From Agarophyton chilense (Eukaryota > Rhodophyta > Florideophyceae > Gracilariales > Gracilariaceae): a stretch of DNA of 64,000 nt. The stretch covers positions 62,001-126,000 of the forward strand of contig JARGXX010000021.1 in the NCBI GenBank assembly GCA_030374765.1, written 5' to 3'. The notes under the pieces were generated by a model that made no database searches, was not told where the DNA came from, and saw only the letters and a program-made list of their open reading frames with translations. Shown piece after piece: positions 2,503 through 61,944 of this stretch; position 1 is the stretch's first letter, and each line of letters begins with the position of its first letter. Both the position numbers and the translations under genes were made by a program.

Positions 2503-3466
2503 GCAGTGTCAGAGGGTGGCAAGGCTGCCCACCTATCGCACTAACCTCCGCGCCCCTGTCACCGGACTCTTCGAGACGTTCTCCCTGGACTTCGCAGGTC
2601 CGTTCCCAGCGTCAAAAGAGAAGAAGAAGTTCCTCATCATCGCGGTGGAGCACTTGACTGGATGGCCCGTAGCACGGGCCACCACAAACTCGGTCGCAGA
2701 CACGGTGGTCGAGTTTGTGAGGGACGAAATAGTTCGTCCATTTGGCCCTCCTCGCACCGTTGTCTCCGATAACGCGAATGTGTTCACGGCGGGTGTTGTC
2801 GAGGCGTTCAATAAGAAGCACGGGATATCTTGGAGGACGGTGCTGCCCTATGCCCCGATGGCAAACGGTAGGGCAGAGAGGATGGTCGGGACGATCAAGG
2901 GCGCGGTGAAGAAGATCGTATTACAAGGAACGCTGGACTGGGAAGAGGCCCTGCCCAGCGTCTTGTCCGGGTATCGTAGGAGAGACCGAGGGGTGGTGCC
3001 GTCTCCTTTCGAGCTATTGTACGGGGTTCGTCCCCGCATGATGGCGACGGATGCCGTGGCACTGTTGCCCTGCGCCACTCCGAGCCAAAGAGCCCTCGAG
3101 GTCTTGGGCATGAGCGGAGAGCGGGCAATGATGGTTGCGAGATCCAGCAACCCCCCGCTGACGAAGAGGAAGATCGAGAAGTACGTGGTGGGAGACGAAG
3201 TGCTGGTGGCGCACGGTCCGGCGTTCAACAAGGCCAAGATGTGGCCCGCTTTCGACTCGTACTACTATGGCCCATGCAGGGTCGTGAAAGCTGCTCATCC
3301 GCGCTACGAGCTGCAGTCTGCGACCGGGCAGGTCACTCGCAGTGCTATACACGCGAGGAGGCTGAAAGGGTACAGACGTCAGCCTCCGCATCTGCAGAAA
3401 CCAGTTCCGGCCGATGCGTGTCGCTGCAGCGCGAAGCAGGGACCAGTGTCCTGTGGAGAGCAGTAA
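2396..3466 (+). CDS. Gypsy integrase, second half of frameshifted Pol
   Basis: Overlaps the previous frame. The meaningful part starts near 2479, where the CxxC half of the HHCC zinc domain (CEQC) appears, so the natural protein was one Pol chain and this ATG is not a real start. The catalytic core keeps D (2588), D (2768) and E (2876); the last two are separated by 35 residues, the classic DD35E spacing. Beyond the core is a basic C-terminal region with an SH3-like stretch (about 3180-3380), ending at TAA in a Cys-rich tail. The integrase would insert element DNA into the nuclear genome. The frameshift means this copy could only work by recoding or if the base-calling is wrong. Confidence 0.82.
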   Translation: MMTLVTGMSLRHGDSSGKGSGGRASSSVTAYVRGCEQCQRVARLPTYRTNLRAPVTGLFETFSLDFAGPFPASKEKKKFLIIAVEHLTGWPVARATTNSVADTVVEFVRDEIVRPFGPPRTVVSDNANVFTAGVVEAFNKKHGISWRTVLPYAPMANGRAERMVGTIKGAVKKIVLQGTLDWEEALPSVLSGYRRRDRGVVPSPFELLYGVRPRMMATDAVALLPCATPSQRALEVLGMSGERAMMVARSSNPPLTKRKIEKYVVGDEVLVAHGPAFNKAKMWPAFDSYYYGPCRVVKAAHPRYELQSATGQVTRSAIHARRLKGYRRQPPHLQKPVPADACRCSAKQGPVSCGEQ

Positions 3467-21929: not shown

Positions 21930-22328
21930 CTGATGCCCTCCTTCCCCATCGGCCTGCAACTCAACGATTTACTTCTCTTCGTAATCAGGAAGCTTTGATG
22001 CAGTGAATTTTTGAAAGTTTCGCCGAACTACATAGAGGTCGGTAACAGTGTGAATCTGATGCCCACCTTACAGATGGTGAGAGCCAGCAGTGCGTCGTCT
22101 GCTTCCAGGCGGTGTTATAAATACCCTTGGTGCTTGGATTTGTCCCTTAAATCTACTTTTTGAGGTGGCATTGCGATCAGACTCACTATTGGGTTTATTT
22201 CCCTTCTCATGGTATTGACGTCGTGCGTTGCGGTTATCCCTTTCTCTGTGTCCGGTACGGTATTTGTAGACATTCTCCGATTTTTTTCGAAGCTCATCAA
22301 TCACAAGCTGAGTTTCGGTGCAGTGTAC

Positions 22329-23436
22329 TGATGGAGGTAGATAAGAAGGATGAGTGTTGAAAGGCAAGGTCGCCAGCTCTGGCTAGAATTTACTTGGGAG
22401 GTTGTCGATCTTCGACTTATACACTACTCAAATCTGACAGCCATCTAATCTCCAGCTCACGTAAACCCTAGACTACAACCCGGGGACATTCAATAATACC
22501 AAGCATATTCAAACATGACATTAAACCCTAACCCAAATTCACGTCAACATACTACAGCAAGGTACAACAGTGCACAACACACCATTACACTGACGTGTGC
22601 ACAAATTCAATATACCAGCACATACAAAGTGTAATCGGCCTCCATGGACGATCCTGTTCCAACAAAGCACTGCATGCCTTCTGTAATACACAAGACAGCA
22701 TGTCTGTTCTTCCAGAACATTCCATACAGCCTGTACTATGTGTTCAACATAAGATCTCGACAGCGTGGACACTTTGCACAGTAGCACAACTAGTGCATGT
22801 GGACACATGTATAAGGCAGACTCTTACTACTTTTCCACCAATTACAGTGACAGCACCAATCACTCATCCGATATCCAACAGTCACTGTAATTGGTGGAAA
22901 AGTAGTAAGAGTCTGCCTTATACATGTGTCCACATGCACTAGTTGTGCTACTGTGCAAAGTGTCCACGCTGTCGAGATCTTATGTTGAACACATAGTACA
23001 GGCTGTATGGAATGTTCTGGAAGAACAGACATGCTGTCTTGTGTATTACAGAAGGCATGCAGTGCTTTGTTGGAACAGGATCGTCCATGGAGGCCGATTA
23101 CACTTTGTATGTGCTGGTATATTGAATTTGTGCACACGTCAGTGTAATGGTGTGTTGTGCACTGTTGTACCTTGCTGTAGTATGTTGACGTGAATTCGGG
23201 TTAGGGTTTAATGTCATGTTTGAATATGCTTGGTATTATTGAATGTCCCCGGATTGTAGTCTAGGGTTTACGTGAGCTGGAGGTTAGATGGCTGTCAGAG
23301 TTGAGTAGTATATAAGTCGAAGATCGACAACCTCAAAGTAAATTCTAGCCAGAGCTGGCGACCTTCCCTTTCAACCCTCAACCTTCCCATCTAATTCCAT
23401 CAGTGACAGCACTAATCACTCATCCGATATCCAACA
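22329..23436. mobile_element. Palindromic LTR unit (two inverted family-2 LTRs) with TSD
   Basis: 22329-22880 is a minus-oriented LTR (TGTTGGATATCGG to CCATCA). 22881-23402 is the same LTR in plus orientation lacking its first 29 nt. 23402-23436 repeats the first 35 nt of the minus LTR. The arms (22329-22851, 22881-23402) are near-perfect inverted repeats of about 520 bp around a 29-nt spacer. The whole unit is bounded by tgtac at 22324-22328 and 23437-23441, so it was inserted, or rearranged after insertion, as one block. TATATAA at 23309-23315 is the LTR promoter. Confidence 0.85.
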
Positions 23437-35001: not shown

Positions 35002-35914
35002 ATTTCAGTCTGTTATCCACGAAGCAGATAGAACGGAACCAAACGAAATTAATTAGTAGAGGGAAGCAGAGTGAGGGACTCAATGCCTTGGGAAGTTTAA
35101 GAAAAGGGCCACGAGCAGTGATGAATTCGTGGCCGAGCTTGCCCGAACGGAGTATCCCAACTCAAACGTTCGACAGCGAGGACGACAGCGGAGACTTTTG
35201 ACGTAGCCTGCAACGCTCATTGAGACGCGTCTCGTACGCGATCACAAGCGGAGCTCGGGTGCTCCCACGCTTGGAGTATACTCACGGGCAGTAGCAGAAG
35301 GCGTACCCGGAACAGACAAACTTCTCGACTTCGGGTTGAAACTTCTTGATTGAACCTACCGAGACTTGCTCGAGGTAGGCGGGCGCACTGGCGGGAGAAA
35401 CTACCTCCGCTACCCTAAAGGATGATCCCCTGGACCCTGGTTACTCTCTCCAGGTGAGGTACGCTTTGATTACCTACCGAACTCTGCGCACTTCAGAGTC
35501 CGGCGCTTTTAGTCCCTACGAGGCGTCCCAAGGAGGGGTGTCGTCAAGATACACTTCCCCCAGTTGACCCAAGCTAGCCTCTTGCGGGAAAGTAGCGCGG
35601 TCGTGCGGTGTAGTACGGTTGCTCCTACACTTCCAAGCCCAATTCATCGACCTCCGTACTCTACGGACGGAGAGCAGGATTTGGCAGACTTCCCGGTCTC
35701 GTGCCAAGGGGGTACTAACAAACGCGATATGTTTTCGCCACCAAGGAGGAAGTCCGCAGGGTACACGCCTGTCGCAAAACAAAATAACTTCTTGAATCCA
35801 GATGAGCGTTAGTCGTAGATCGCGCACCTGTGGCAGTAGGGAATCTTCTTGAATCCAAATAAATGTTAGTAGAGCGTGACGTCTGCGAAGAGTCGACGCT
35901 CTGGGCCCATAACC
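35002..35914 (-). other. Leader and primer-binding site of element D
   Basis: Minus-strand PBS GGTTATGGGCCCAG at 35914-35901, adjacent to the 5' LTR, matches the initiator tRNA-Met anticodon arm. The conserved structured leader block lies at 35524-35348. No coding capacity is supported. Confidence 0.75.
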
Positions 35915-37329: not shown

Positions 37330-38242
37330 GTTTGAGTCTGTTATTCACGGAGCAGATAGAACGGAGCCAAAAGAAATTAATAAGTAGAGGGAAGCAGAGT
37401 GAGGGACTCAATGCTTAGGGGAGTTTAGGAAAGGGCCACGAGCAGTGATGAAGTCGTGGCCGAGCTTGCCCGAACGGAGTATCCTTACTCAAACGTTCGA
37501 CAGCGAGGACGACAGCGGAGACTTTTGACGTAGTCTGCAACGCTCACCGAGACGCGTCTCGTACGCGGTCACACGTGGAGCTTGGGTGCTCCCACGCGTG
37601 GAGTATACTCACTGGCAGTAGCAGAAGGCGTACCTGGAACAGACAAACTTCTCGACTTCTGGTTGAAACTTCTTAATTGAAGCTACCGAGACTTGCTCGA
37701 GGTAGGCGGGCGCACTGGCGGGAGAAACTACCTCCGCTACCCTAAAGGATGATCCCCTGGACCCTGGTTACTCTCTCCAGGTGAGGTACGCTTTGATTAC
37801 CTACCGAACTTTGCGCACTTCAGAGTCCGGCGCTTTTAGTCCCTACGAGGCGTCCCAAGGAGGGGTGTCGTCAAGATACACTTCCCCCAGTTGACCCAAG
37901 CTAGCCTCTTGCGGGAAAGTAGCGCGGTCGTGCGGCGTAGTACGGTTGCTCCTACACTTCCAAGCCCAATTCATCGACCTCCGTACTCTACGGACGGAGA
38001 GCAGGATTTGGCATACTTCCCGGTCTCGTGCCAAGGGGGTACTAACAAACGCAATATGTTTTCGATACCAAGGAGAAAGTCCGCAGGGTACACGCCTGTC
38101 GCAAAATAAAAATAACTTCTTGAATCCAGATGAGCGTTAGTCCTAGATCGCGCACCTGTCACAGTAGGGAAACTTCTTGAATCCAGATGAGTGTTAGAAG
38201 AGCGTGACGTCTGCGAAGAGTCGACGCCCTGGGCCCATAATC
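37330..38242 (-). other. Leader and primer-binding site of element C
   Basis: PBS GATTATGGGCCCAG at 38242-38229 (one mismatch). The conserved leader block lies at 37851-37675, with one stem mutated (CAAAGT against ACTCTG). Otherwise non-coding. Confidence 0.7.
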
Positions 38243-46128: not shown

Positions 46129-46445
46129 TGATGAGTATTTAGGTCGCACCACTTTGGATGATTTTTTGAGGTTTTATTAGTTATGATTTATGTTTGAAAT
46201 TGTTTTGGCGCGCAACTCCTCGTCGCACGGTGGCAAGCTGTCAGACGTGGGTGACCCGCCGACGGTCAGCACCGGCGTTGGAAGTGCGGGCAAGGTAGTT
46301 ATAGTTGTCAATGACGGTCGCCGACGACCATACAAAATTGTCAAGGCTGACTACCTTCATTTGCTTCTCTTCTTTTACTTTCGTTTTCTTTTCGTCTTTT
46401 TCTTTCTTTTCCTTTTCCTTTTCATAACCTGCGCTCCCTTTGTGA
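46129..46445 (+). repeat. 5' LTR of element E with internal deletion
   Basis: Begins TGATGAGTATTTAGGTCG (first Cys-type base changed from TGTTGAG) and jumps at about 46146 directly to the CACCACTTTGGATG segment, which lies about 375 bp into a full LTR. About 357 bp are missing. Ends CCTTTGTGA beside the PBS. Confidence 0.8.
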
Positions 46446-47361
46446 GGTTATGGGCCCAGATCGTCGACTCTTCGCAGACGTCACGCTCTTCTGACACTCA
46501 TTTGGATTCAAGAAGATTCCCTACTGCGACAGGTGCGCGATCTACGACTAAAGCTCATCCGGATTCAAGAAGTTATTTTTATTTTGCGACAGGCGTGTAC
46601 CCTGCGGACTTTCTCCTTGGTATCGAAAACATATTGCGTTTGTTAGTACCCCCTGGGCACGAGATCGAGAAGTCTGCCAAATCCTGCTCTCCGTCCGTAG
46701 AGTACGGAGGTCGATGAATTGGGCTTGAGGGTGTAGAAGCAACCGTACTACACCGCACGACCGCGCTACTCTCCCGCAAGAGGCTAGCTTGGGTCAACTG
46801 GGGGAAGTGTATCTTGACGACACCCCTCCTTGGGACGCCTCGTAGGGACTAAAAGCGCCGGACTCTGAAGTGCGCAGAGTTCGGTAGGTAATCAAAGCGT
46901 ACCTCACCTGGAGAGAGTAACCAGGGTCCAGGGGATCATCCTTTAGGGTAGCGGAGGTAGTTTCTCCCGCCAGTGCGCCCGCCTACCTCGAGCAAGTCTC
47001 GGTAGGTTCAATCAAGAAGTTTCAACCCGAAGTCGAGAAGTTTGTCTGTTCCGGGTACGCCTTCTGCCACTGCCCGTGAGTATACTCCAAGCGTGGGAGC
47101 ACCCGAGCTCCGCTTGTGATCGCGTACGAGACGCGTCTCGGTGAGCGTTGCAGGCTACGTCAAAAGTCTCCGCTGTCGTCCTCGCTGCCGAACGTTGGAG
47201 TTGGGATACTCCGTTCGGGCAAGCTCGGCCACGAATTCATCACTGCTCGTCGCCCTTTTTCTTAAACTTTCCAAGGCATTGAGTCCCTCACTCTGCTTCC
47301 CTCTACTTAATAATTTCGTTTGGTTTCCTTTTTATCTGCTTCGTAGATAACAGACTGAAAC
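46446..47361 (+). other. PBS and leader of element E
   Basis: GGTTATGGGCCCAG at 46446-46459 (initiator tRNA-Met anticodon arm). The conserved leader block lies at 46837-47013. ATG of gag at 47362. Confidence 0.75.
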
Positions 47362-49068
47362 ATGTCGGACACGGAGATGGAATCCGAAAGTACTACCGGG
47401 ATGAAAATCCCTCGTTTTCATGGAAGGCGTGGTGATGATTATGCCCTATGGCGCCATCGCCTTCGTGCTGCATGCCGTGGTAAAGGTGTGTGGAATGTCG
47501 TGGAATCCGATGCTGGATATTCAGCAACTACTGAAGCAACATCGGACACTGGTGTTGACACCGCTCGCCTCATGGCCAAGCGCGAAAAGGCTTTTGGAAT
47601 CATCATTTGTGCTCTTGGCGATGCTCCACTACGCGTGGTTATGGATGTCGATGACAACCCGCAGCGCATGCTAGCTTTGTTAGATGCACAGTATGCGTCT
47701 AATCGTACCGTTTCTAGGATCGCAGTTCAAACACAGCTGTTCCGCATGGCGTACAATGGTCAGAATATGGCTAGTTATGTGGACAAGTACACAGCTCTGT
47801 TCTCTCAATTGGAGCGTATGGGAAAAGATGCGGCTATACCGGAATCTCACAAGGCTCCGATGTTGCTCGCTTCCATAGATCCCGACTGCGCTTTGAAGAC
47901 CACGGCTGCGGCTCTTCGCACCAAGGACATCGCTGAGCTCACATGGGATCATGTTGCTACTACGCTCATCGATGAGTATAATGCAAAGCAAGTGACAACG
48001 AAGCCACCAGGGCGAAGCTCTTGTCGGAAGAAGAGGGGCAAGAACAAAGGCGGTCGACATTTTGACACCACCGAACGCGCCAAGTCTGTCTCAGGAAACA
48101 GTGGCGATGAGTCGGATGACCAATCTGACCTTGATTGTACCGCTTGTGCACTTGCCCTGGCCCTGAAGTCAATTTCTTCGGATCGTTCCAGCAGTAGCAA
48201 TGGTCACCATTACACCTTCTGCGACCGTGATGGACACACTCAGGGTCGCTGTTTCATGAATCAGGAAAACCCTGAAAAACACCTACCGCAAAACATCATA
48301 GAAAAAGTTTCGTCTCATTCGAAGAAAGTGGGTGCAGGTGGTGGATCGATCAAGTCATCTGCTAAGTCTGGAAGGGTGGAAGTCGCTGGTGCAGCAGTCT
48401 ACAAAACCAACATAGTTCTCCCAAAGGATCTGAACACTTATGCTGATAGTTGTGCGACTGTGAATTGCTTCCATTCGGAGATGGCGTTCATACATGGTTC
48501 ATTGCACTCTTGTAACCGAAGGACGGTTATGCTCGCCGACAACACTACAGTGGTAGGCACTCGATGCGGAGATGTGCTCCTTCCCTTTCGGAATGCAAAT
48601 CTACGGCTCACAGCTGTGCTGCTTTTACCGAGTTTGGGATACAACTTGGTGTCCACTGGATGCTTGGCCGACAAAGGTATTGACTCGTACTTCTCTCGTC
48701 TCCATGTGAGTTTAATGCGTGAGTCCAATGGGTTTGAACTGGGTTGTGGTTACTCTGATGCAGAGTCTGGCATGTACATGCTTCCGCAACCTATGCTACA
48801 TACCTCACCGGCGGTGGCATTAGTGGCTCGACACACGGACACTGAGGTTTGGCACCGACGGCTTGCGCATATGAACGTGCGAGACCTACAGTTGGTGCAC
48901 AAGTATGCCGATGTTGTCCCACAGCTGTCTTTAATGGAGGAGGTATGCAGGGCCTGTTGTCTTGGCAAGGCTCACAAGCTACCATGTCCGGGTCACTTCC
49001 AACATGCCGCCGCTGTTGGTGACATAGCGCATTCGGATATTCTTGGACCTTTGGTGAACTCCTTCTAA
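47362..49068 (+). CDS. Copia E Gag, protease, integrase zinc domain (broken)
   Basis: 568 codons from MSDTEMESEST to a TAA (49066) that sits where F has Pro in the integrase core. The zinc knuckle has lost its first Cys (YTFC instead of CDFC), and the protease reads ADSCA instead of ADSGA. Both changes would damage function. The integrase zinc domain (HRRLAH...CRAC) is intact. It is about 70-75 percent similar to F by eye, so it is a distinct older lineage. Confidence 0.85.
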   Translation: MSDTEMESESTTGMKIPRFHGRRGDDYALWRHRLRAACRGKGVWNVVESDAGYSATTEATSDTGVDTARLMAKREKAFGIIICALGDAPLRVVMDVDDNPQRMLALLDAQYASNRTVSRIAVQTQLFRMAYNGQNMASYVDKYTALFSQLERMGKDAAIPESHKAPMLLASIDPDCALKTTAAALRTKDIAELTWDHVATTLIDEYNAKQVTTKPPGRSSCRKKRGKNKGGRHFDTTERAKSVSGNSGDESDDQSDLDCTACALALALKSISSDRSSSSNGHHYTFCDRDGHTQGRCFMNQENPEKHLPQNIIEKVSSHSKKVGAGGGSIKSSAKSGRVEVAGAAVYKTNIVLPKDLNTYADSCATVNCFHSEMAFIHGSLHSCNRRTVMLADNTTVVGTRCGDVLLPFRNANLRLTAVLLLPSLGYNLVSTGCLADKGIDSYFSRLHVSLMRESNGFELGCGYSDAESGMYMLPQPMLHTSPAVALVARHTDTEVWHRRLAHMNVRDLQLVHKYADVVPQLSLMEEVCRACCLGKAHKLPCPGHFQHAAAVGDIAHSDILGPLVNSF

Positions 49069-49791: not shown

Positions 49792-50465
49792 TGTTGAGGT
49801 TTGGTCGACTGTGCCCCCAAGCCCTTTGGAGTGTTGGAAATAGTGGAAAACAAAAAGTGGATTTAAGCATGGGCACTTTTGGGCACCCTCCGCGGAAAAA
49901 CGCATATGCGCCTCATCTCAATCTCAACGTGAAACGGCCATCTGATTGGCTACTGCAAATGCCCTCATGCAACGTGGTATGGACAAGTGGTCTGGTTCTA
50001 ATGGGGCGTGTTGGGGCTTCGGCCCAAGTGGAGCGATTTGATTGGACGAGAGCGCTGAATGAGCACGGGCTATGCAGTTGGAGAGAATGTGCGAATGTGG
50101 GCTGGATACGGGGTTTGGCCGTAACAGCCGAATCTGGGCTGCGCGGGGTGGTTGGCACTGGCGCACCACTTTGGATGATTTTTTTGAGTTTTTATTTGAT
50201 ATGCTTCATGTTTGAAATTGTTTTGGCGCGCAACTCCTCGTCGCACAGTGGCAAGGTGTGAGACGTGGGTGACCCGCCGACGGTCAGCACCGGCGGCGGA
50301 ACTGCGTGCGAGGTAGATATAGTTTTCAATGACGGTCGCCAACGATCGAAGTAAATTGTCAAGGCTGACTACCTTCCTTTGTTTCTCTTCTTTTATTTTT
50401 CTCTTCTTCTCGTCTTTTCCCCCTCTTCTTCCTTTTCCTTTACCTAACCTGCGCTCACGTTGTGA
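49792..50465 (+). repeat. 5' LTR of element F
   Basis: TGTTGAGGTTTGGTCGAC to TCACGTTGTGA. It contains two ATTGG (CCAAT) boxes near 49946 and 50040 and a TAGATATAG-type A/T box near 50312. U3, R and U5 limits cannot be set by eye. A 156-codon frame runs through most of it (49791-50261), also open in several other copies. Confidence 0.93.
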
Positions 50466-51378
50466 GGTTATGGGCCCAGAGCGTCGACTCTTCGCAGACG
50501 TCACGCTCTACTAACATTTATTTGGATTCAAGAAGATTCCCTACTGCGACAGGTGCGCGATCTACGACTAACGCTCATCTGGATTCAAGAAGTTATTTTG
50601 TTTTGCGACAGGCGTGTACCCTGCGGACTTCCTCCTTGGTGGCGAAAACATATCGCGTTTGTTAGTACCCCCTTGGCACGAGACCGGGAAGTCTGCCAAA
50701 TCCTGCTCTCCGTCCGTAGAGTACGGAGGTCGATGAATTGGGCTTGGAAGTGTAGGAGCAACCGTACTACACCGCACGACCGCGCTACTTTCCCGCAAGA
50801 GGCTAGCTTGGGTCAACTGGGGGAAGTGTATCTTGACGACACCCCTCCTTGGGACGCCTCGTAGGGACTAAAAGCGCCGGACTCTGAAGTGCGCAGAGTT
50901 CGGTAGGTAATCAAAGCGTACCTCACCTGGAGAGAGTAACCAGGGTCCAGGGGATCATCCTTTAGGGTAGCGGAGGTAGTTTCTCCCGCCAGTGCGCCCG
51001 CCTACCTCGAGCAAGTCTCGGTAGGTTCAATCAAGAAGTTTCAACCCGAAGTCGAGAAGTTTGTCTGTTCCGGGTACGCCTTCTGCCACTGCCCGTGAGT
51101 ATACTCCAAGCGTGGGAGCACCCGAGCTCCGCTTGTGATCGCGTACGAGACGCGTCTCGGTGAGCGTTGCAGGCTACGTCAAAAGTCTCCGCTGTCGTCC
51201 TCGCTGTCGAACGTTTGAGTTGGGATACTCCGTTCGGGCAAGCTCGGCCACGAATTCATCACTGCTCGTGGCCCTTTTCTTAAACTTCCCAAGGCATTGA
51301 GTCCCTCACTCTGCTTCCCTCTACTAATTAATTTCGTTTGGTTCCGTTCTATCTGCTTCGTGGATAACAGACTGAAAT
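50466..51378 (+). other. PBS and leader of element F with conserved structured block
   Basis: PBS GGTTATGGGCCCAG (50466-50479) abuts the LTR and complements the initiator tRNA-Met anticodon arm. A direct repeat (tggattcaagaag, 50523 and 50581) follows. The block at 50856-51032 is shared with element G. It has hairpins ACTCTG/CAGAGT (50881-50899) and CCTACC/GGTAGG (51001-51025), and invariant strings TCCAGGGG, CTTTAGGG and GCCAGTGCGCCCGC (50988-51001). It may serve packaging, dimerisation or translation. Confidence 0.75.
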
Positions 51379-54300
51379 ATGTCGGACACGGAAATGGAAT
51401 CCGAAAGTACTACCGGGATGAAAATCCCTCGTTTTCATGGAAGGCGTGGTGATGATTATGCCCTATGGCGCCATCGCCTTCGTGCTGCATGCCGTGTTAA
51501 AGGTGTGTGGAACGTTGTGGAATCCGATTCTGGATATTCAGCAACTACTGAAGCAACATCGGATACCGCTATTGATAGCGCTCGAGTTGTCGCCAAGCGC
51601 GAGAAGGCATGTGGAATCATAATATGCGCCTTGGGTGATGCGCCACTTCGTGTGGTCATGGATGTCGACGACGACCCGGCGCGCATGCTCGCATTACTTG
51701 ATGCACGGTATGCGTCCAATCGTACTGTATCCAGAATTGCTGTGCAGACTCAACTATTCCGTATGGGATACAATGGTCAGAATATGTCAGGCTATGTGGA
51801 CCAGTACACGGCGTTATTTGCTCAGTTAGAGCGCATGGGAAAGGATGCGGCAGTACCCGAGTCGCACAAAGCTCCCATGTTACTTGCTTCTATTGATCCC
51901 AATTGCACACTGGAGTCTACTGCTGCAGCTCTTCGAACCAAGGATATCGCTGAGCTTACATGGGACTACGTGGCCACGACCCTCATAGATGAATACAACG
52001 CGAAACAGGTGTCTGCAAGGCCGTCTGGACGTAGTTCACGTCGCAAGAAGAAGGGCAGGAAAAAATCTGGTCGACATTCTGAATCGACTAATCGTACCCG
52101 CAGTAGTGCAAACAACGAAGATGAGGAGTCTGATGGTCACTCCGACATTGAGTCTACTGCTCGTGCACTTGCTGCCGCCTTGAGATCGTCATCATTTGAT
52201 CGTTCTGGATCGAGCAATGGACATCATTGCGACTTCTGTGATCGCGATGGACACACACAAGATCGTTGCTTTATGAATCCGGACAACCCGGACAACCACT
52301 TGCCGCAGAGTATCCTCGATAAACTGTCGCCACAACCCAAGCGAATGGGTGGCAGTAGTGGTAGAAGCGCCTCGAGCAAGTCTTCTGGAAAGTCTGGAAA
52401 AATCGAAATTGCTGGTGCAACTGTGGAAAGGACCACTATAGTTCCGCCGAATGACCTGAGTACCTACGCAGACAGCGGTGCGACAGTACATTGCTTCCAT
52501 TCTGTTTGTGCGTTCGTGCCCGGTTCACTTGAACCTTGCGACGAAAGGACAGTGATGCTTGCCGATAACACATCTGTTGTATCTAAACAACGCGGAGAGG
52601 TGATCATTCCTTTGGACAATGCGAACATACGTCTGAGTGATGCCCTACTGACCCCCGCTCTGGGATACAACTTGGTTTCAACCGGGTGTTTGGCCGACAA
52701 AGGTATTGAGTCGCTCTTCGGTCGTCATAGTGTACGTTTGACGCTAGAGTCAAATGGTTTTGAGGTGGGCATTGGTGATCGTGACAAGGTATCTCGCATG
52801 TACACACTGCCTCAACCTTTAGGGCATGCTGGCGTGGAACTTGCGCTTTCGACAAAGTCTACGGAGACTCAACTGTGGCACCGACGACTGGCTCACATCA
52901 ACCAACGTGATCTGCAACATGTACACAAGTACGCAGATGGAGTGCCGCACTTGTGTGACATGGAGGAGGTATGCCGAGCATGTCGACTTGGCAAGGCTCA
53001 TAAGCTTCCGTTCCCAGGTCACTTTGAACATGCATCCGCGGTTGGTGACATTGTGCACTCGGATATTGTAGGTCCTCTGGAAAAGTCTTTTCCGGAAAAG
53101 TTTCAATATGCATGTACATTCCTCGATGATCACTCACGGTATGTGTTCCTAGGTCTGGTGATCCATCGCAGTGCTCTTAGTGACGTGTTTGTGGGTATTG
53201 CGGCAAAGTTTAAGCAGCTTGGAGGAGTGCATATCAAAAGTTTGCACTCGGACGGTGCAGAAGAATATATTGCCCTGCAAGAGAACTGGGCAGCAGAACA
53301 TGGCCTCACTTCTTTCTCTGCTCCATACACCCCCGAACACAACGCTATAGCTGAGCGCATCAATCGTACCATGGTGGAAGCTGCTCGATCGTTGCTGATC
53401 CAAGCCGATCTACCAGAATGTTTGTGGCCATATGCGCTGAAACATGTTATCTTTGTGCGTAATCGAGTGCAACATTCTACTGTTAACAACAGTCCCTACT
53501 TTCTGGTAACTGGAAATAAACCTTTGTTGAAGCACGTGCGTGTGTTTGGATGCACTGCATTCGTGCTAAGGACTCCGCGTGGACCCAAGTTCGAGTCTCG
53601 TGCACTTGAGGGAGTGTACTTGGAGACTCTTGAGCATGGTGTGTACAAGGTACTCGTCGTTGATAATGATGGTACTCCGCGTATTATTGAGTCACGACAT
53701 GTTACTTTTGATGAATCCAAGTTCCCTGGCGCATCATCTCTTGCCAACTACATGGATGATGAAAGTGCGTCAGATGCTGACTATAGCTCTGATATGGGAT
53801 TATGTGATAGCATTGATGACGAATCGGATACCTTCTCCGTGGATAATGTTGAGGAGGAGGTGGTTCATGACGGATCCTCGCACCTGATTCCAACACTCAG
53901 GCAGTCGGAGTCAGACTCCGGCAGCAATGAAGACGATGCACAGGATTCCGAAAGTGATGACGAAAGTGCTGCTGATGACCTTGATACATCTGCCAACGCT
54001 GATACGGAACCACGCTACCCGCGGCGCACGCGCCGTCAACCTCTGAGGTGGTTCATGGCAGGGTCTGCTCACTGTACATCGCAAGTCAAAGTCACTACTA
54101 GTGATGAGCCCTCACTCAAGGAGGCAATGTCCGCCAGTGCGGAGGAGCGTACCATGTGGCAAGCAGCCGTCGATGAAGAGTTTTCATCATTGGAGTCGAA
54201 GCAAACTTGGAAACCTGATGACTCTCCTGCTTCACAACCACTACCAACTCACGTCATACTGAAGGTAAAGCGCAATGCTGATGGGTCAGTTGAACGTTTT

Positions 54301-55680
54301 AAGGCTCGTGTTGTAGCCGGTGGAAACCACCAAACATATGGTCAGGACTACATGGAGACTTATGCACCAGTTGTTTCGTTCTCTTTGGTTCGCATATTCT
54401 TGTATCTGACGTTATGCTTGCGCATGTATGTGGTACAGGTGGATGTGAAGACTGCGTTTCTCAATGGCGAACTTGAGGAAGATGTGTGGATCATGTCACC
54501 TCGAGGTATACCTGGCGTGACTTCACGATGCTTCAAATTGCTCAAGGCTATCTATGGACTGAAGCAAGCGCACTTGGCATGGCACAACAAACTATGCGAG
54601 GATATGAAAAGCATATGTTTTGAAGAGTTACCGAGTGCACCTTGCGTGTTTCGCCGCCAAAACGAGAGCAATGAGGATGCGTTCGTGCTAGTTTATGTGG
54701 ATGACTTGCTAATATTCACAACTTCTGCCATGGAACGTGATGCGATTTTGGAGGAGCTTAAGTCGTTTTACGAGCTGCGTGTGGCGGACGAAGTGAACTT
54801 GTACCTCGGCGTTGAATTTAAATGGACTTTAGATTCAGATGGTCGACCTGTGTCGCTGTATCTTGGTCAGTCACTGTACACGGAAAGCGTGTTGCGCCGT
54901 TTCGGGTTTCAGCGATCCAAGCCGGCATGCACCCCTATGGTAGAATCTTTTTTTACCGGGTGGACATCTGAGAAAGACAAATCCATCCAGGATACTCAGC
55001 TGTACCAGCAGATCATTGGATCGCTTTTGTATTTGGCACTGAGAACTCGGTTGGATATATTAGCACCCGTCCTAATCTTGGCTCGTTTTCAGAAATCGCC
55101 CACGGCCTACTGTCACAAGGCAGCAAAGCGGGTTCTTCGTTACCTTCGCGGTACAACTGAACATGGTGTGCACTATCACTCTGGCATGGTGAAACTGGAG
55201 GCGTACGTTGACTCTGACTACGCTGCGGACACGCGTGATCGCAAGTCAATGTCTGGTTTCTTAGTGAAGCTTGGCAAAGCGACATGTATGTGGGGCGCAA
55301 GAAAACAGGCTTCGGTGGCGTTGTCTACCGGCGAGGCCGAGTATTATGCTTTGACGCTTGCGTGTCAGGAGGTCATTTGGTTGAAGCGTGTGCTTAAGGA
55401 GATTGGATGGAAAGTGCAAGGTGCTGTGCCCATTCGTTCGGACAACCAGTGCGCCATTGACTGGGCAACTGGTGAACGCTGTCCGTCGGGTCGCGCTAAG
55501 CACATTGACGTTAAGTTGCACTTCGTTCGGGAACTAGTCAAGGATTGTCACATCAATGTGACGTACGTTCCAAGTGAAGACAATGATGCGGACTTCTTAA
55601 CTAAACCACTTGGCCCAGGTCTTCACAACAATAACGCGGACCGTGTTGGACTTGGCCGACCAGTCGAGGAGGAGTGTTGA
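51379..55680 (+). CDS. Copia Gag-Pol polyprotein (intact)
   Basis: 1,433 codons in a single frame, as in most copia elements. Order: Gag with zinc knuckle CX2CX4HX4C at residues 284-297; protease with ADSGA (Asp365); integrase zinc domain from His501 to the CRAC pair at about 531-534; integrase core D562, D625, E659; acidic Ser/Asp linker (about 790-880); RT with KTAFLNG, GLKQ and YVDD at 1106-1109; RNase H with YVDSD (1277-1280), STGEAEYY (Glu1319) and SDNQ (Asp1355). It makes virus-like particles, copies the element RNA and integrates the cDNA. The stop TGA is at 55678-55680, inside the first six bases of the 3' LTR (TGTTGA). How Gag is made in excess is not obvious, since there is no frameshift or stop at the Gag-Pol border. 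Confidence 0.95.
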   Translation: MSDTEMESESTTGMKIPRFHGRRGDDYALWRHRLRAACRVKGVWNVVESDSGYSATTEATSDTAIDSARVVAKREKACGIIICALGDAPLRVVMDVDDDPARMLALLDARYASNRTVSRIAVQTQLFRMGYNGQNMSGYVDQYTALFAQLERMGKDAAVPESHKAPMLLASIDPNCTLESTAAALRTKDIAELTWDYVATTLIDEYNAKQVSARPSGRSSRRKKKGRKKSGRHSESTNRTRSSANNEDEESDGHSDIESTARALAAALRSSSFDRSGSSNGHHCDFCDRDGHTQDRCFMNPDNPDNHLPQSILDKLSPQPKRMGGSSGRSASSKSSGKSGKIEIAGATVERTTIVPPNDLSTYADSGATVHCFHSVCAFVPGSLEPCDERTVMLADNTSVVSKQRGEVIIPLDNANIRLSDALLTPALGYNLVSTGCLADKGIESLFGRHSVRLTLESNGFEVGIGDRDKVSRMYTLPQPLGHAGVELALSTKSTETQLWHRRLAHINQRDLQHVHKYADGVPHLCDMEEVCRACRLGKAHKLPFPGHFEHASAVGDIVHSDIVGPLEKSFPEKFQYACTFLDDHSRYVFLGLVIHRSALSDVFVGIAAKFKQLGGVHIKSLHSDGAEEYIALQENWAAEHGLTSFSAPYTPEHNAIAERINRTMVEAARSLLIQADLPECLWPYALKHVIFVRNRVQHSTVNNSPYFLVTGNKPLLKHVRVFGCTAFVLRTPRGPKFESRALEGVYLETLEHGVYKVLVVDNDGTPRIIESRHVTFDESKFPGASSLANYMDDESASDADYSSDMGLCDSIDDESDTFSVDNVEEEVVHDGSSHLIPTLRQSESDSGSNEDDAQDSESDDESAADDLDTSANADTEPRYPRRTRRQPLRWFMAGSAHCTSQVKVTTSDEPSLKEAMSASAEERTMWQAAVDEEFSSLESKQTWKPDDSPASQPLPTHVILKVKRNADGSVERFKARVVAGGNHQTYGQDYMETYAPVVSFSLVRIFLYLTLCLRMYVVQVDVKTAFLNGELEEDVWIMSPRGIPGVTSRCFKLLKAIYGLKQAHLAWHNKLCEDMKSICFEELPSAPCVFRRQNESNEDAFVLVYVDDLLIFTTSAMERDAILEELKSFYELRVADEVNLYLGVEFKWTLDSDGRPVSLYLGQSLYTESVLRRFGFQRSKPACTPMVESFFTGWTSEKDKSIQDTQLYQQIIGSLLYLALRTRLDILAPVLILARFQKSPTAYCHKAAKRVLRYLRGTTEHGVHYHSGMVKLEAYVDSDYAADTRDRKSMSGFLVKLGKATCMWGARKQASVALSTGEAEYYALTLACQEVIWLKRVLKEIGWKVQGAVPIRSDNQCAIDWATGERCPSGRAKHIDVKLHFVRELVKDCHINVTYVPSEDNDADFLTKPLGPGLHNNNADRVGLGRPVEEEC

Positions 55681-56348
55681 GGTTTGGTCGACTGTGCCCC
55701 CAAGCCCTTTGGAGTGTTGGAAATAGTGGAAAACAAAAAGTGGATTTAAGCATGGGCACTTTTGGGCACCCTCCGCGGAAAAACGCATATGCGCCTCATC
55801 TCAATCTCAACGTGAAACGGCCATCTGATTGGCTACTGCAAATGCCCTCATGCAACGTGGTATGGACAAGTGGTCTGGTTCTAATGGGGCGTGTTGGGGC
55901 TTCGGCCCAAGTGGAGCGATTTGATTGGACGAGAGCGCTGAATGAGCACGGGCTATGCAGTTGGAGAGAATGTGCGAATGTGGGCTGGATACGGGGTTTG
56001 GCCGTAACAGCCGAATCTGGGCTGCGCGGGGTGGTTGGCACTGGCGCACCACTTTGGATGATTTTTTTGAGTTTTTATTTGATATGCTTCATGTTTGAAA
56101 TTGTTTTGGCGCGCAACTCCTCGTCGCACAGTGGCAAGGTGTGAGACGTGGGTGACCCGCCGACGGTCAGCACCGGCGGCGGAACTGCGTGCGAGGTAGA
56201 TATAGTTTTCAATGACGGTCGCCAACGATCGAAGTAAATTGTCAAGGCTGACTACCTTCCTTTGTTTCTCTTCTTTTATTTTTCTCTTCTTCTCGTCTTT
56301 TCCCCCTCTTCTTCCTTTTCCTTTACCTAACCTGCGCTCACGTTGTGA
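55675..56348 (+). repeat. 3' LTR of element F
   Basis: 674 bp, identical by eye to the 5' LTR. Follows the polypurine tract 55666-55674. Its first bases supply the gag-pol stop codon. TSD ctggt follows at 56349-56353. Confidence 0.93.
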
Positions 56349-58806: not shown

Positions 58807-60009
58807 GGTTATGGGCCCAGCCCCGCGGACCTCCGCCGTATAGTTCGTCTCTCGCGGCTCTCCCGCACCGCCGTTCACCCGCTTCGCTGTTCTATTCTCT
58901 TCGTTTCCGCCTTAGTAGCCGTTTCGTCGGGTGTGTGACCGTATCGTGGGTTGGTGTTGGTATTTTCTTTCGGTCTTGCGTTACTCCCTGAGGGCGTTGT
59001 GGTGGTAGTGGTTGGACGTTGTTATCGTGATTCTGTTTGGGTGCTCGTTGTTGCCCGTGTTTGTCGATCGCTATCCGTTTCGTTTGGTCTCCCTCTCTTT
59101 CGTTGTTTTGTGGATCCCTGCGTCGTGTTTGCGGGTTTTGATCTGAGAGGTTGAGGACCGTGTTTGTTGAAGTCTGGGCCTGGAGTTCTTGGCTCAGCGT
59201 TCGTGTGTGTTTGTGTGTTTGGTCTGCATCTTTGCCTGTTGTACGAGCGGTTGATCCGAGGCACTTTGGGTGATTCCTTGTACTCGCGGACGTTAGCCTG
59301 GCGGCTTGAACCAAAGCAGGTGTACTGTCAAGCGGGTTCCACACTGGTCCTTTTAGGGCGGATAACAGTGACGGTTGAAAGATCTGGTTGAACTTTGCGG
59401 GTGCATTTGTGGACGGGGTGCCGTGGCGCACTGCATTTGGCTGGTTGTTTGACTTTGTGTGTGAGCCCGACCTTTGTGGTTGAGCACTTGGACTGTTGTG
59501 AACAGCATCTATAAGGGGCTTTTGATCCGCAGTACGCGGGGAGGCGACGTTTCGAAGGCTGACCTCCTTTTCAGGATCAGGCCGCGTGCGATCTTCATTG
59601 ATTGCTCGTTAGAAGCGTATCTTGGTGTTGATGTAGCTTCGGTTTTGAGGTCGCGCTAGTTCCTGAAAGAGGCCAGAGAGGGTCAACTTGGTGAAGGCAT
59701 ATCTTCGGTCATTAACCATCCTCTGGAAGCCTCGTAAGGAGCAACGCGCCTTCTCCTTGTCACGTGGGAGGAGGTAGACTGCAGAAAACCGTTATCTACC
59801 CAGAAGAGCACTGGGGGCCAGGGGTCCAAACTTTAGGGACGCGGGTATAGGAAGCCCTGCCAGTGCGCCCGCAGACTATTGTCTGTTCAATCTTGAAGAA
59901 TTATTTGTTGTTTGTTGTTTTTGCTTTGTTGTTGTTGTCTGTTGTTGTTGTTCACTTGTCTGTTGCTGTCCAGCCATCTCTCTCGGCCTCTTGTGACACT
60001 TTGCACAAC
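58807..60009 (+). other. PBS and leader of element G with conserved structured block
   Basis: PBS GGTTATGGGCCCAGC (58807-58821). The block at 59729-59892 shares with F the strings GCCTCGTA, GCGCC, GGTAG, CCAGGGG, CTTTAGGG, GCCAGTGCGCCCGC (59859-59872) and GTTCAATC. Its hairpins have different stem sequences: TCTCC/GGAGG (59752-59771), GGTAGA/TCTACC (59773-59800) and CAGAC/GTCTG (59872-59885). No coding function is supported for the rest of the leader. Confidence 0.7.
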
Positions 60010-61944
60010 ATGGATTCGTTCAGTGGAGTGAAAATCGAAAAGCTGGTTGAGGATAACTTCCACGTATGGAAGCAGAAGATTGAGCTGCTGCTTGCACTCA
60101 AGCTCGACGGTCACCTCGACTCTGTTAGACCCACTGAAGAAGATGAGCTGTCGACTTGGAAAAAGAATGATGCCAAGGCCAGAGCTATTATTGGTCTCAC
60201 ACTCAGTGATGAGCATTTAGATCATGTGCGGGACGCCGACAACGCTGCCGATATGTGGAAAGCCATTTGCGATGTGTTCCAACGCAAGACTCTGCTCAAC
60301 AAAATCAACGCCCGACGGTCCTTCTACTCTGCCAAGATGCGTGATGATGAGAAAATGCTACAGTTCATCAACCGTGTACGTCATCTGGCATCGGACCTGA
60401 AGTGTATGGACGTTGTTGTTGAGGAGGAGGACATCGCTATGGCCATCCTATGCGGACTTCCGGAAAGATTCGAGCACCTCATCGTCGCAATTGATACCAC
60501 GATTGGCGATCGTCAACTCACTCTAGAGTTTGTGAAGAGTCGTCTGCTGCAAGAAGAGCAGCGAATGAACGATCGTGCCAAGGAGGATCCTGGTGGAAGT
60601 GAGGCAGCTTTGCTTGGCAGGCAGTTCCGATGGATGAACATCGAGTGTCATTATTGTCATAAGAAGGGTCATATCCAGAGGAACTGTTTCAAGAAGCAAC
60701 GTGATGGGGCTAACAGGAATCAGGTCGGTGCTGCTCACCCAACTGTCAATACTGAGCTCAGCGATGAGCGAGGTACGGGTGGCAACGACTCTGACTTTGT
60801 ATGTCTCATTGCTACTGGCTCTGATAAAGCCACGAACAGTGACTGGATTGTTGACTCTGGTGCTACTGCCCACATGACTTTTGACGAATCCATGTTCCAA
60901 ACATATGATAGTAAGGTGTCTTCTGGCGTTAGCATCGGTAATGATTCCAAACTAGAGTCTGTTGGTCACGGTAGTGAGGAGCTTGATCTGGTTGATGAAG
61001 GGTCCAAACGGAAGTGCCAGCTGAAGCAAGTTGTTCATGTACCGAATTTAAGGTACCATTTGCTTTCTGTATGGGCGATTTGTGATCTGGGGTGCAAAGT
61101 AGTGTTTGAAAAAGAGAAGGTATGTGTATACAAGGGGTCAAAAGTGGTTGCCTTGGGTCGCCGCGTCAAAGGCCTATACTACCTTTGCACTGCTGCACAC
61201 CAGTGTGCAGATGTAAACAGCGCACTTGTGTTGGACTTGTCACGATGGCATGCTCGAATGGCTCATGTTAATGTGGATGGTATCAAGCATTTGGCTCGAA
61301 ACAAGGTTGTGTCAGGGCTCAATGTAGACGTTGCGCAGGATTCAGATGTGTGTGGCTCATGTGTAGTAGGAAAAGCAACGCGTGCTCCGACTCCCAAGCA
61401 AGGGGGGGAACGAGCAAAACACGTACTGGAACTTGTTCACTCCGATGTGTCAGGTCCAGTAAGTGTGAAATCCTTGGGAGGCACGCACTACTTCGTCACA
61501 TTCATCGATGATCACAGTCGTTTCTGTTTCTTCTACATGCTCAAAACTAAGGATGAGGTGTTCCAGATGTTCCTAAGGTGGCTCAGGTTTGTTCAAAACC
61601 AAACTGGCAGACAAGTGAAAACCATCACCGCACGTGAGAGTGTGCTCAAAGCATTGCGCACTGACAACGGTGGTGAATATCTGTCACATCGTTTTACCAA
61701 AGAACTTGAACGTCACGGTATTGAGCATCAGCGAACTGTGCCTTACAATCCTCACCAGAATGGACTTGACGAACGGTTCAACCGCACACTCATGGACTTG
61801 GACAGATCGATGTTATGTCACAAGAAATTGCCAAAGCACTTTTGGGCTGAGGCACTGAATGTTGCAGTGTATGTGCGCAACCGTGTGACTTGCAAAGCTC
61901 TTCCAAGTAGTGTGACACCATATGAACTGTGGCATGGTCAGTAG
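60010..61944 (+). CDS. Copia G Gag, protease, integrase (interrupted by stop)
   Basis: Start chosen at ATG 60010 (MDSFSGVKIEKL). The frame is open back to 59863, but the extra 49 residues are leader-encoded and unlike Gag. Gag of the UBN2/copia type (residues 1-about 200), zinc knuckle CHYCHKKGHIQRNC, protease DSGATAHM, integrase zinc domain HARMAH...CGSC, core D (VHSDVSGP), D (TDNGGEY), E (LDERFNRT). Ends at TAG 61942-61944 within HGQ.PDVSNLRVFG, a one-base change from Lys or Gln. The same frame continues immediately, so the stop is probably a recent mutation. Confidence 0.88.
   Translation: MDSFSGVKIEKLVEDNFHVWKQKIELLLALKLDGHLDSVRPTEEDELSTWKKNDAKARAIIGLTLSDEHLDHVRDADNAADMWKAICDVFQRKTLLNKINARRSFYSAKMRDDEKMLQFINRVRHLASDLKCMDVVVEEEDIAMAILCGLPERFEHLIVAIDTTIGDRQLTLEFVKSRLLQEEQRMNDRAKEDPGGSEAALLGRQFRWMNIECHYCHKKGHIQRNCFKKQRDGANRNQVGAAHPTVNTELSDERGTGGNDSDFVCLIATGSDKATNSDWIVDSGATAHMTFDESMFQTYDSKVSSGVSIGNDSKLESVGHGSEELDLVDEGSKRKCQLKQVVHVPNLRYHLLSVWAICDLGCKVVFEKEKVCVYKGSKVVALGRRVKGLYYLCTAAHQCADVNSALVLDLSRWHARMAHVNVDGIKHLARNKVVSGLNVDVAQDSDVCGSCVVGKATRAPTPKQGGERAKHVLELVHSDVSGPVSVKSLGGTHYFVTFIDDHSRFCFFYMLKTKDEVFQMFLRWLRFVQNQTGRQVKTITARESVLKALRTDNGGEYLSHRFTKELERHGIEHQRTVPYNPHQNGLDERFNRTLMDLDRSMLCHKKLPKHFWAEALNVAVYVRNRVTCKALPSSVTPYELWHGQ

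What the first reader, a model, noticed from the sequence alone, without database searches (positions are those of the whole stretch)
50856..51032. Structured leader RNA conserved between two very different copia families
Seen directly: leader blocks in element F (50856-51032) and element G (59729-59892) share GCCTCGTA, GCGCC, GGTAG, CCAGGGG, CTTTAGGG, the 14-mer GCCAGTGCGCCCGC and TTCAATC in the same order, although the Gag proteins and LTRs are very different. Between the invariant strings, hairpins change sequence but keep pairing: ACTCTG/CAGAGT versus TCTCC/GGAGG after GCGCC, and CCTACC/GGTAGG versus CAGAC/GTCTG after the 14-mer. Copies also lie at 46837-47013 (E), 35348-35524 (D) and 37675-37851 (C). 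This pattern suggests selected RNA structure: a packaging/dimerisation signal, translation element or ribozyme-like domain. I know of no described motif that fits, but I cannot search.
Basis: partly seen in the sequence, partly recalled or inferred. Interest (0 to 1): 0.75.

Follow-up and report, generated by a model that had tools for sequence, protein, structure and literature searches.

The report
Conserved RNA fold in copia leaders
Two very different copia-type jumping genes in what is probably a red alga carry the same folded stretch of RNA ahead of their genes, and its stems have changed letters in matching pairs, which suggests that the RNA shape itself is kept for a step of the element's life that is not yet known.

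Summary
C, D, E and F are one sequence type, G a second; a third (H, L065) was found once elsewhere in the genome. The host is probably a gracilarialean red alga. RNAalifold on F, H and G gives one fold (P1-P10): 0 of 200 column shuffles are as stable (z -3.7; F+G z -5.6). In my hand model of 58 pairs F and G differ by 15 two-sided compensatory changes, 5 pairs broken. In C and E against F the block changed less than the flanking leader (p about 0.001 each). Rfam: no match. Both leaders are poor in ATG, against a simple internal ribosome entry site. Against: single-sequence folding prefers other folds, changes in the copies look neutral, G against L076 shows no trough, and there are only three types, in one genome. 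Other copia families seen there have the primer site and no block. Function is inferred: a packaging/dimerisation-type domain is my first choice, a host-read export or translation element the main rival.

The parts
50781..51032 (+). Structured leader block of element F (P1-P10 plus TTCAATC)
59652..59892 (+). Structured leader block of element G
46762..47013 (+). Block in element E (F type)
35348..35599 (-). Block in element D (F type)
37675..37926 (-). Block in element C (F type)
50466..50479 (+). Primer binding site of F, GGTTATGGGCCCAG, complementary to the anticodon arm of a tRNA-Met gene of this genome (L101, anticodon cat)
58807..58820 (+). Same primer binding site in G
49792..50465 (+). 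5' LTR of F (100% identical to 55675-56348)
55675..56348 (+). 3' LTR of F
50781..50786 (+). P1 5' strand CGCGCU; pairs with 50991-50996 and closes the domain
50879..50901 (+). P5 hairpin of F: five two-sided compensatory changes against G, three against H
50988..51001 (+). 14-mer GCCAGTGCGCCCGC, the same in F, H and G (3' strands of P9 and P1)
51001..51025 (+). P10 hairpin of F: two two-sided changes against G, one G.U in H
51026..51032 (+). Unpaired TTCAATC of F, the same in H and G
59886..59892 (+). Unpaired TTCAATC of G
51379..55680 (+). F Gag-Pol open frame (Retrotran_gag_2, rve, RVT_2; one CCHC knuckle)
60010..61944 (+). G Gag and first part of Pol, start ATG at 60010, one CCHC knuckle

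Best explanation
The block is a cis-acting, selected RNA domain in the leader of the genomic RNA of two copia lineages. Shown by sequence: it lies between primer binding site and gag. Supported by comparison: it folds into a domain closed by P1 with an arm P2-P4 and hairpins P5-P9, followed by hairpin P10 and an invariant TTCAATC. Inferred: it works like the packaging/dimerisation domain of retroviral leaders and of Ty1. It would mark full-length RNA as genome, be bound by the zinc-knuckle end of Gag (from which point F and G proteins can be aligned) or by a second RNA copy, and help to part packaged from translated RNA. Its presence in two lineages with dissimilar capsid parts could come from an old exchange, or from common descent with loss elsewhere. 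Structure under selection: about 0.9. This function rather than another: about 0.4.
For: RNAalifold on F, H, G: -61.4 kcal/mol against -42.2 (sd 5.2) for 200 column shuffles, 0 of 200 as low; F and G alone z -5.6, 0 of 200. Hand model of 58 pairs: standard in F 56, H 54, G 55; F-G 15 two-sided, 1 one-sided, 37 the same, 5 broken; dealing out partners anew gives 5.7 two-sided on average, 0 of 2000 reach 15. Copy L067 has a two-sided change in the alternative hairpin P8alt, GGGCC/GGTCC to AGGCC/GGTCT. Block against flanking leader: E 1 of 252 changed against 29 of 660, C 3 of 252 against 39 of 659, Fisher p 0.0013 and 0.0012. Both Gags carry one CCHC knuckle, and F-G protein similarity begins there. 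Ty1 has sequences for translation, packaging and reverse-transcription start in a conserved structured 5' domain (PMC5454406: abstract, section 3.2 and passages seen).
Against: No packaging, dimer or Gag-binding data. The best fold that contains the model lies 14 (F), 25 (H) and 17 (G) kcal/mol above the predicted minimum; in H, P1-P4, P6 and P7 have pair probability about 0, in G P8 and P9. The minimum folds themselves are ordinary (z 0.04 for F, -1.65 for G). F-H and H-G alone are weak in the alifold test (z -2.2 and -2.0; 7 and 8 of 200). F-H two-sided changes (3) are no more than with partners dealt anew (mean 2.2; 752 of 2000 reach 3). The hand model was tuned on these sequences. Changes among F copies keep pairs no more than random placement (2 of 10; mean 1.8); G copies 4 of 7 (mean 3.3). 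G against L076: block not less changed than the rest of the leader (9 of 241 against 29 of 956, p 0.54). The P5 loop palindrome is lost in 46 of 48 G loops counted. Other copia families seen in the genome show no block. Three types only, all in one genome.
Confidence: 0.45

Rival explanations
1. The block is read by a host factor rather than by Gag: an RNA transport element of the CTE/RTE kind, or a translation element that helps ribosomes along the long leader. Such modules can serve unrelated elements because the partner belongs to the host.
For: The capsid parts of F and G are barely alike (21%, E 0.017) while the RNA is kept, so a shared partner outside the capsid is an economical reading. 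RTE and MTE, and the structured leader of cauliflower mosaic virus, are described as export elements (PMC12786077, passages seen).
Against: Other copia families seen in the same host show no block. No Rfam match. The few ATGs of both leaders speak for scanning and against simple internal entry.
Confidence: 0.33
2. Shared origin or exchange only: one lineage took the leader of the other by template switching, and no function keeps the stems.
For: Leader exchange seems to happen: E and F are 94-100% alike through leader and the first 185 bases of gag, then 72-81%. The block's distribution does not follow the best RT tree.
Against: 15 two-sided compensatory changes between F and G, and 0 of 200 shuffles in the alifold test; the trough of divergence in C and E lies on the block, though exchange may explain part of it.
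Confidence: 0.1
3. The block binds the initiator tRNA primer beyond the primer site, as Box0 and Box1 of Ty1 do (PMC8396678, passages seen).
For: A 9-base complementary run, CCAGTGCGC to GCGTGCTGG of the genome's tRNA-Met, in F, H and G.
Against: Shuffled tRNA halves do as well in 61, 54 and 44 of 200 cases for F, H and G.
Confidence: 0.05
4. Self-cleaving ribozyme or another described RNA family.
For: None beyond compact folding.
Against: No Rfam match at gathering scores in the window; up to E 5 nothing around F and one chance-level match around G.
Confidence: 0.03

Closest known systems
Ty1 5' TIPIRT domain (yeast Pseudoviridae)
   Same: Structured 5' domain of a copia-type genomic RNA, conserved among Ty1 and Ty2 (PMC5454406: abstract, section 3.2 and passages seen)
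   Different: The Ty1 domain begins at the RNA 5' end, takes in the gag start and is a pseudoknot; here the domain lies wholly in a long leader, after the primer site, and no pseudoknot or kissing pair was shown
BARE1/BARE2 of barley
   Same: Two copia-type elements said to share dimerisation and packaging signals (PMC3735527, passages seen)
   Different: BARE2 lacks its own Gag start; F and G are distant and each has a gag frame
Retroviral packaging/dimerisation leaders
   Same: Place between primer site and gag, several hairpins (recalled; only search listings seen)
   Different: No sequence relation found; palindromic loop not kept here
RTE/MTE and cauliflower mosaic virus leader export elements
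   Same: Structured cis elements of retroelement RNA (PMC12786077, passages seen)
   Different: No Rfam match here; export not tested
Sirevirus conserved non-coding motifs
   Same: Conserved non-coding parts in divergent copia-type elements (PMC2829016: abstract and outline seen)
   Different: The abstract names PPT copies, LTR repeat boxes, LTR junction and integrase signal, not a structured leader domain

Membership tests
Ty1/copia (Pseudoviridae) elements F and G | Copia-type Gag, integrase before a reverse transcriptase of RVT_2 type | tested here: met
Ty1/copia (Pseudoviridae) elements F and G | Primer site complementary to initiator tRNA, here its anticodon arm (half-tRNA primer, recalled for Drosophila copia) | tested here: met
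   14-base complement of the tRNA-Met gene in L101; that this tRNA-Met is the initiator is recalled from its sequence
Packaging/dimerisation leader domain | Lies between primer site and gag | tested here: met
Packaging/dimerisation leader domain | Conserved secondary structure with compensatory changes | tested here: met
   limits in the Against line
Packaging/dimerisation leader domain | Conserved palindromic or mutually complementary loops | tested here: not met
   P5 loop palindrome in F, H and window G, lost in 46 of 48 G loops counted; other loop pairs not tested
Packaging/dimerisation leader domain | RNA is bound by Gag, dimerises, is enriched in particles | not testable with these tools
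   -
Internal ribosome entry site | Upstream ATGs tolerated because the leader is bypassed | tested here: not met
   F leader 2 ATG (dinucleotide expectation 6.5), G leader 2 (12.4), one of each in the primer site; indirect
Internal ribosome entry site | Starts translation without a cap | not testable with these tools
   -
RNA transport element (CTE/RTE) | Promotes export through a host receptor | not testable with these tools
   -
Rfam families | Match to a covariance model | tested here: not met

The most novel reading that the evidence does not exclude
A portable RNA module: a 250-nt domain that two distant copia lineages with dissimilar capsids both keep because a partner common to both, most simply a host protein or the ribosome, reads it. 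Leaders would then be exchangeable parts that decide whose RNA is exported, translated or packaged in red algae.
Probability: 0.3. Interest if true: 0.72.

Novelty: new variant of a known kind. Interest (0 to 1): 0.52.

Why it matters
The cis-acting RNA structures of copia-type elements are, as far as I recall and saw, worked out mainly for Ty1. A domain with compensatory changes between two distant families gives a comparative handle on how such elements mark their genomic RNA, in a host group where my searches listed no such work. If a host factor reads it, it would point to a step of retroelement RNA handling that several families share.

Tried and rejected
Rfam: no match at gathering scores in the whole window; none up to E 5 for 50700-51400; one chance-level match (a bacterial sRNA, E 3.6) for 59600-60000.

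tRNA-primer complementarity: not above shuffles. In one search the G protein was read in a wrong frame; its G rows are void and were redone.

Palindromic kissing loop in P5: present in F, H and window G, lost in 46 of 48 G-type loops counted, overlapping loci included.

Small upstream frame as a shunt signal: the start-stop ATG TAG of window G (59631) is in 2 of 41 matches counted.

Further types in the genome. Pattern AAGAGGC.. with F and G letters excluded: 0 hits, but it would miss type H as well. Pattern GGKCCAGGGG..CYTTAGGG with exclusions: 9 hits, reversed control 3; the 6 fetched are one F copy, one G copy and four without a match, the other 3 were not fetched. Pattern CCAGTGCGCCCGCK..: not completed. 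Of the 260 places only 100 are listed, so a further rare type is not excluded. The primer-site pattern sees only sites followed by G or T.

Viral contigs: 0 matches to the 14-mer pattern; 7 to a looser pattern, not followed up; 2 stretches matched peptide patterns of the G reverse transcriptase, none confirmed. Phage records: no match.

Tandem LTR-leader units on C1 looked like leader-only elements, but share one junction, so a local amplification is likelier.

No covariance model was built and R-scape was not run.

Full report
What is there. The window lies in a genome of 79.8 Mb in 135 contigs. One beta-tubulin of it is 97% identical to that of Gracilaria domingensis, while the next matches of its own length are unnamed and 83-85%, so the host is probably a gracilarialean red alga. 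The window holds several copia-type elements. Element F has two identical LTRs, 49792-50465 and 55675-56348, and an open Gag-Pol frame from 51379. F and G both begin their leader with GGTTATGGGCCCAG, the complement of the anticodon arm of a tRNA-Met gene of this genome. That is the half-tRNA primer known for copia of Drosophila (recalled). Leaders are long: 913 nt in F (50466-51378), 1203 nt in G (58807-60009; the G boundary is inferred from the primer site).

The shared block. Whole leader against whole leader, F and G match only in two pieces of the block (72-73%) and in the 14-base primer site; their LTRs show one 23-base match at E 0.034. The pattern 14-mer + gap + TTCAATC is found 260 times in the genome, its reversed control 0 times; 100 places are listed. 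Of 74 matches in the loci then held (overlaps included, two cut short) 29 are distinct: F-like, G-like, and one of a third type at C2:744656, locus L065, here called H. A search with H's block gave H once and 39 F-like places at 81-82% (best 40 of 153 candidates scored).

Fold. RNAalifold on a plain MAFFT alignment of F, H and G gives a domain closed by CGCGCU/AGUGCG (P1), an arm P2-P4, hairpins P5 to P9, and hairpin P10 outside: -61.4 kcal/mol against a mean of -42.2 (sd 5.2) for 200 column shuffles, none as low. F+G: z -5.6 (0 of 200). F+H: z -2.2 (7 of 200). H+G: z -2.0 (8 of 200). I then fixed 58 pairs by hand: standard in F 56, H 54, G 55. Between F and G 37 are the same, 15 differ on both sides and still pair, 1 differs on one side, 5 are not standard in one of them. 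Partners dealt anew give 5.7 two-sided changes on average; 0 of 2000 reach 15. Between F and H: 45 same, 3 two-sided, 4 one-sided, 6 broken; 752 of 2000 dealings reach 3, so these alone prove nothing, though all three sit in P5 (ACUCUG/CAGAGU against GUUCUG/CAGAAC, and the basal pair). H and G: 33 same, 12 two-sided, 6 one-sided, 7 broken; P4 is best here (three two-sided), while F has two U.U mismatches. P1 keeps pairing in all types but for its last pair in H, and 4 and 2 of 15 distinct G rows carry C to T changes that leave G.U pairs. In the CCAGGGG region two exclusive hairpins have some support: CCAGGGG/CUUUAGG (P8) and GGUCC-AGG-GGAUC (P8alt). P8alt reads GGGCC/GGTCC 39 times, GGTCC/GGATC 33, GGGCT/GGTCC 4 (paired), AGGCC/GGTCT 1 (two-sided), and GGGCC/GGTAC and GAGCC/GGTCC once each (broken) (overlapping loci included).

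Constraint. Against F, copies E and C show a trough of divergence on the block: E 1 of 252 changed against 29 of 660 in the flanking leader, C 3 of 252 against 39 of 659; Fisher p 0.0013 and 0.0012. E and F stay 97% alike through the first 185 bases of gag and then fall to 72-81%, so recombination also shapes these leaders and may explain part of the identity. G against L076 shows no trough (9 of 241 against 29 of 956, p 0.54). Changes among copies keep pairs no more than random placement: F 2 of 10 (mean 1.8; 10 distinct rows of 30), G 4 of 7 (mean 3.3; 17 distinct rows of 48). A second count of G, 45 copies, has 9 changes in 116 paired positions, 6 of them pair-keeping, and 18 in 125 unpaired, p 0.15.

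Against the fold. The best fold containing it lies 14 (F), 25 (H) and 17 (G) kcal/mol above the minimum, and the minimum itself is ordinary (z 0.04 for F, -1.65 for G). P5 and P10 have high pair probability in F and G, and P2 and P3 in G; in G P8 and P9 are near 0; in H only P5, P8b, P9b and P10 reach about a half or more. The domain may switch, or be held by protein, or part of the model may be wrong.

Which elements have it. A primer-site pattern that leaves out F's and G's next base gave 19 places. Two (L076, L077) are G copies. The other 17 show none of GGGTCAACT, GCCTCGTA, CCAGGGG, CTTTAGGG or CCAGTGCG in the next 1.5 kb; other short strings occur singly (CGCGCTA in L078 and L085, TTCAATC in L092). 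In the two of these where I read an open gag frame, it starts about 160 (L079) and 230 (L078) nt after the primer site. By Gag, F is nearest to L079/L082 (94 and 74 bits, F rows), and G's capsid part is nearer to L078 and L088 (86 and 74 bits) than to F's (22 bits). By reverse transcriptase, however, the best match of F among those compared is G (203 bits; L107 191), while G's is L107 (256 bits; L106 206, F 203). In the tree F joins L104/L105 weakly with long branches, G lies among unnamed proteins from the protein search; F and G as one clade is not rejected (p-AU 0.147). So exchange, or common descent with loss, are both open.

Function. F and G leaders hold 2 ATGs each, one in the primer site; dinucleotide expectation is 6.5 and 12.4, P(2 or fewer) 0.043 and 0.0004. 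Ribosomes thus probably scan these leaders, and a simple internal entry site is less likely. Place, size and shape resemble packaging/dimerisation leaders, and both Gags have one CCHC knuckle at which their similarity begins. Against this: the capsids differ and a palindromic loop is not kept. A host-read export or translation element is the main rival.

Literature. Searches on structured or covarying leaders of copia-type elements, packaging signals, IRES in copia, and red-algal copia listed, by title and start of abstract, no paper that describes this domain; three lists were cut (12 of 19, 12 of 76, 12 of 37), and only open-licence PMC papers are held. Seen: PMC5454406 (abstract, section 3.2, passages), PMC8396678 (passages), PMC3735527 (passages), PMC12786077 (passages), PMC2829016 (abstract, outline), PMC3587641 (passages; red-algal GalEa-like copia elements are known).

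Noticed in passing
50162-52300 against 46145-48290: Element E shares leader and the first 185 bases of gag with F at 94-100%, then drops to 72-81%: a likely recombination point.
   Followed up: partly
G000:C6 31956-49806, C2 658682-664652, C20 55262-68426: Leader copies at spacings of 5939, 5937 and 6560 bases; these look like tandem arrays of whole elements.
   Followed up: no
G000:C1 1036321-1039151; L047-L049: A 1393-base LTR-plus-leader unit repeated in tandem with one shared junction.
   Followed up: partly
50466-51378 and 58807-60009: ATG is rare in both long leaders.
   Followed up: yes
22-3466: Parts of an element with RT, RNase H and integrase domains of the Ty3/gypsy kind (the kind is recalled).
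   Followed up: no
22324-23408: A 1.1 kb stretch that matches its own reverse complement at 95.5%.
   Followed up: no
G000:C2:744640-744930 (L065): Single copy of a third leader type, surrounded by pieces of other LTRs; its gag was not looked for further.
   Followed up: partly
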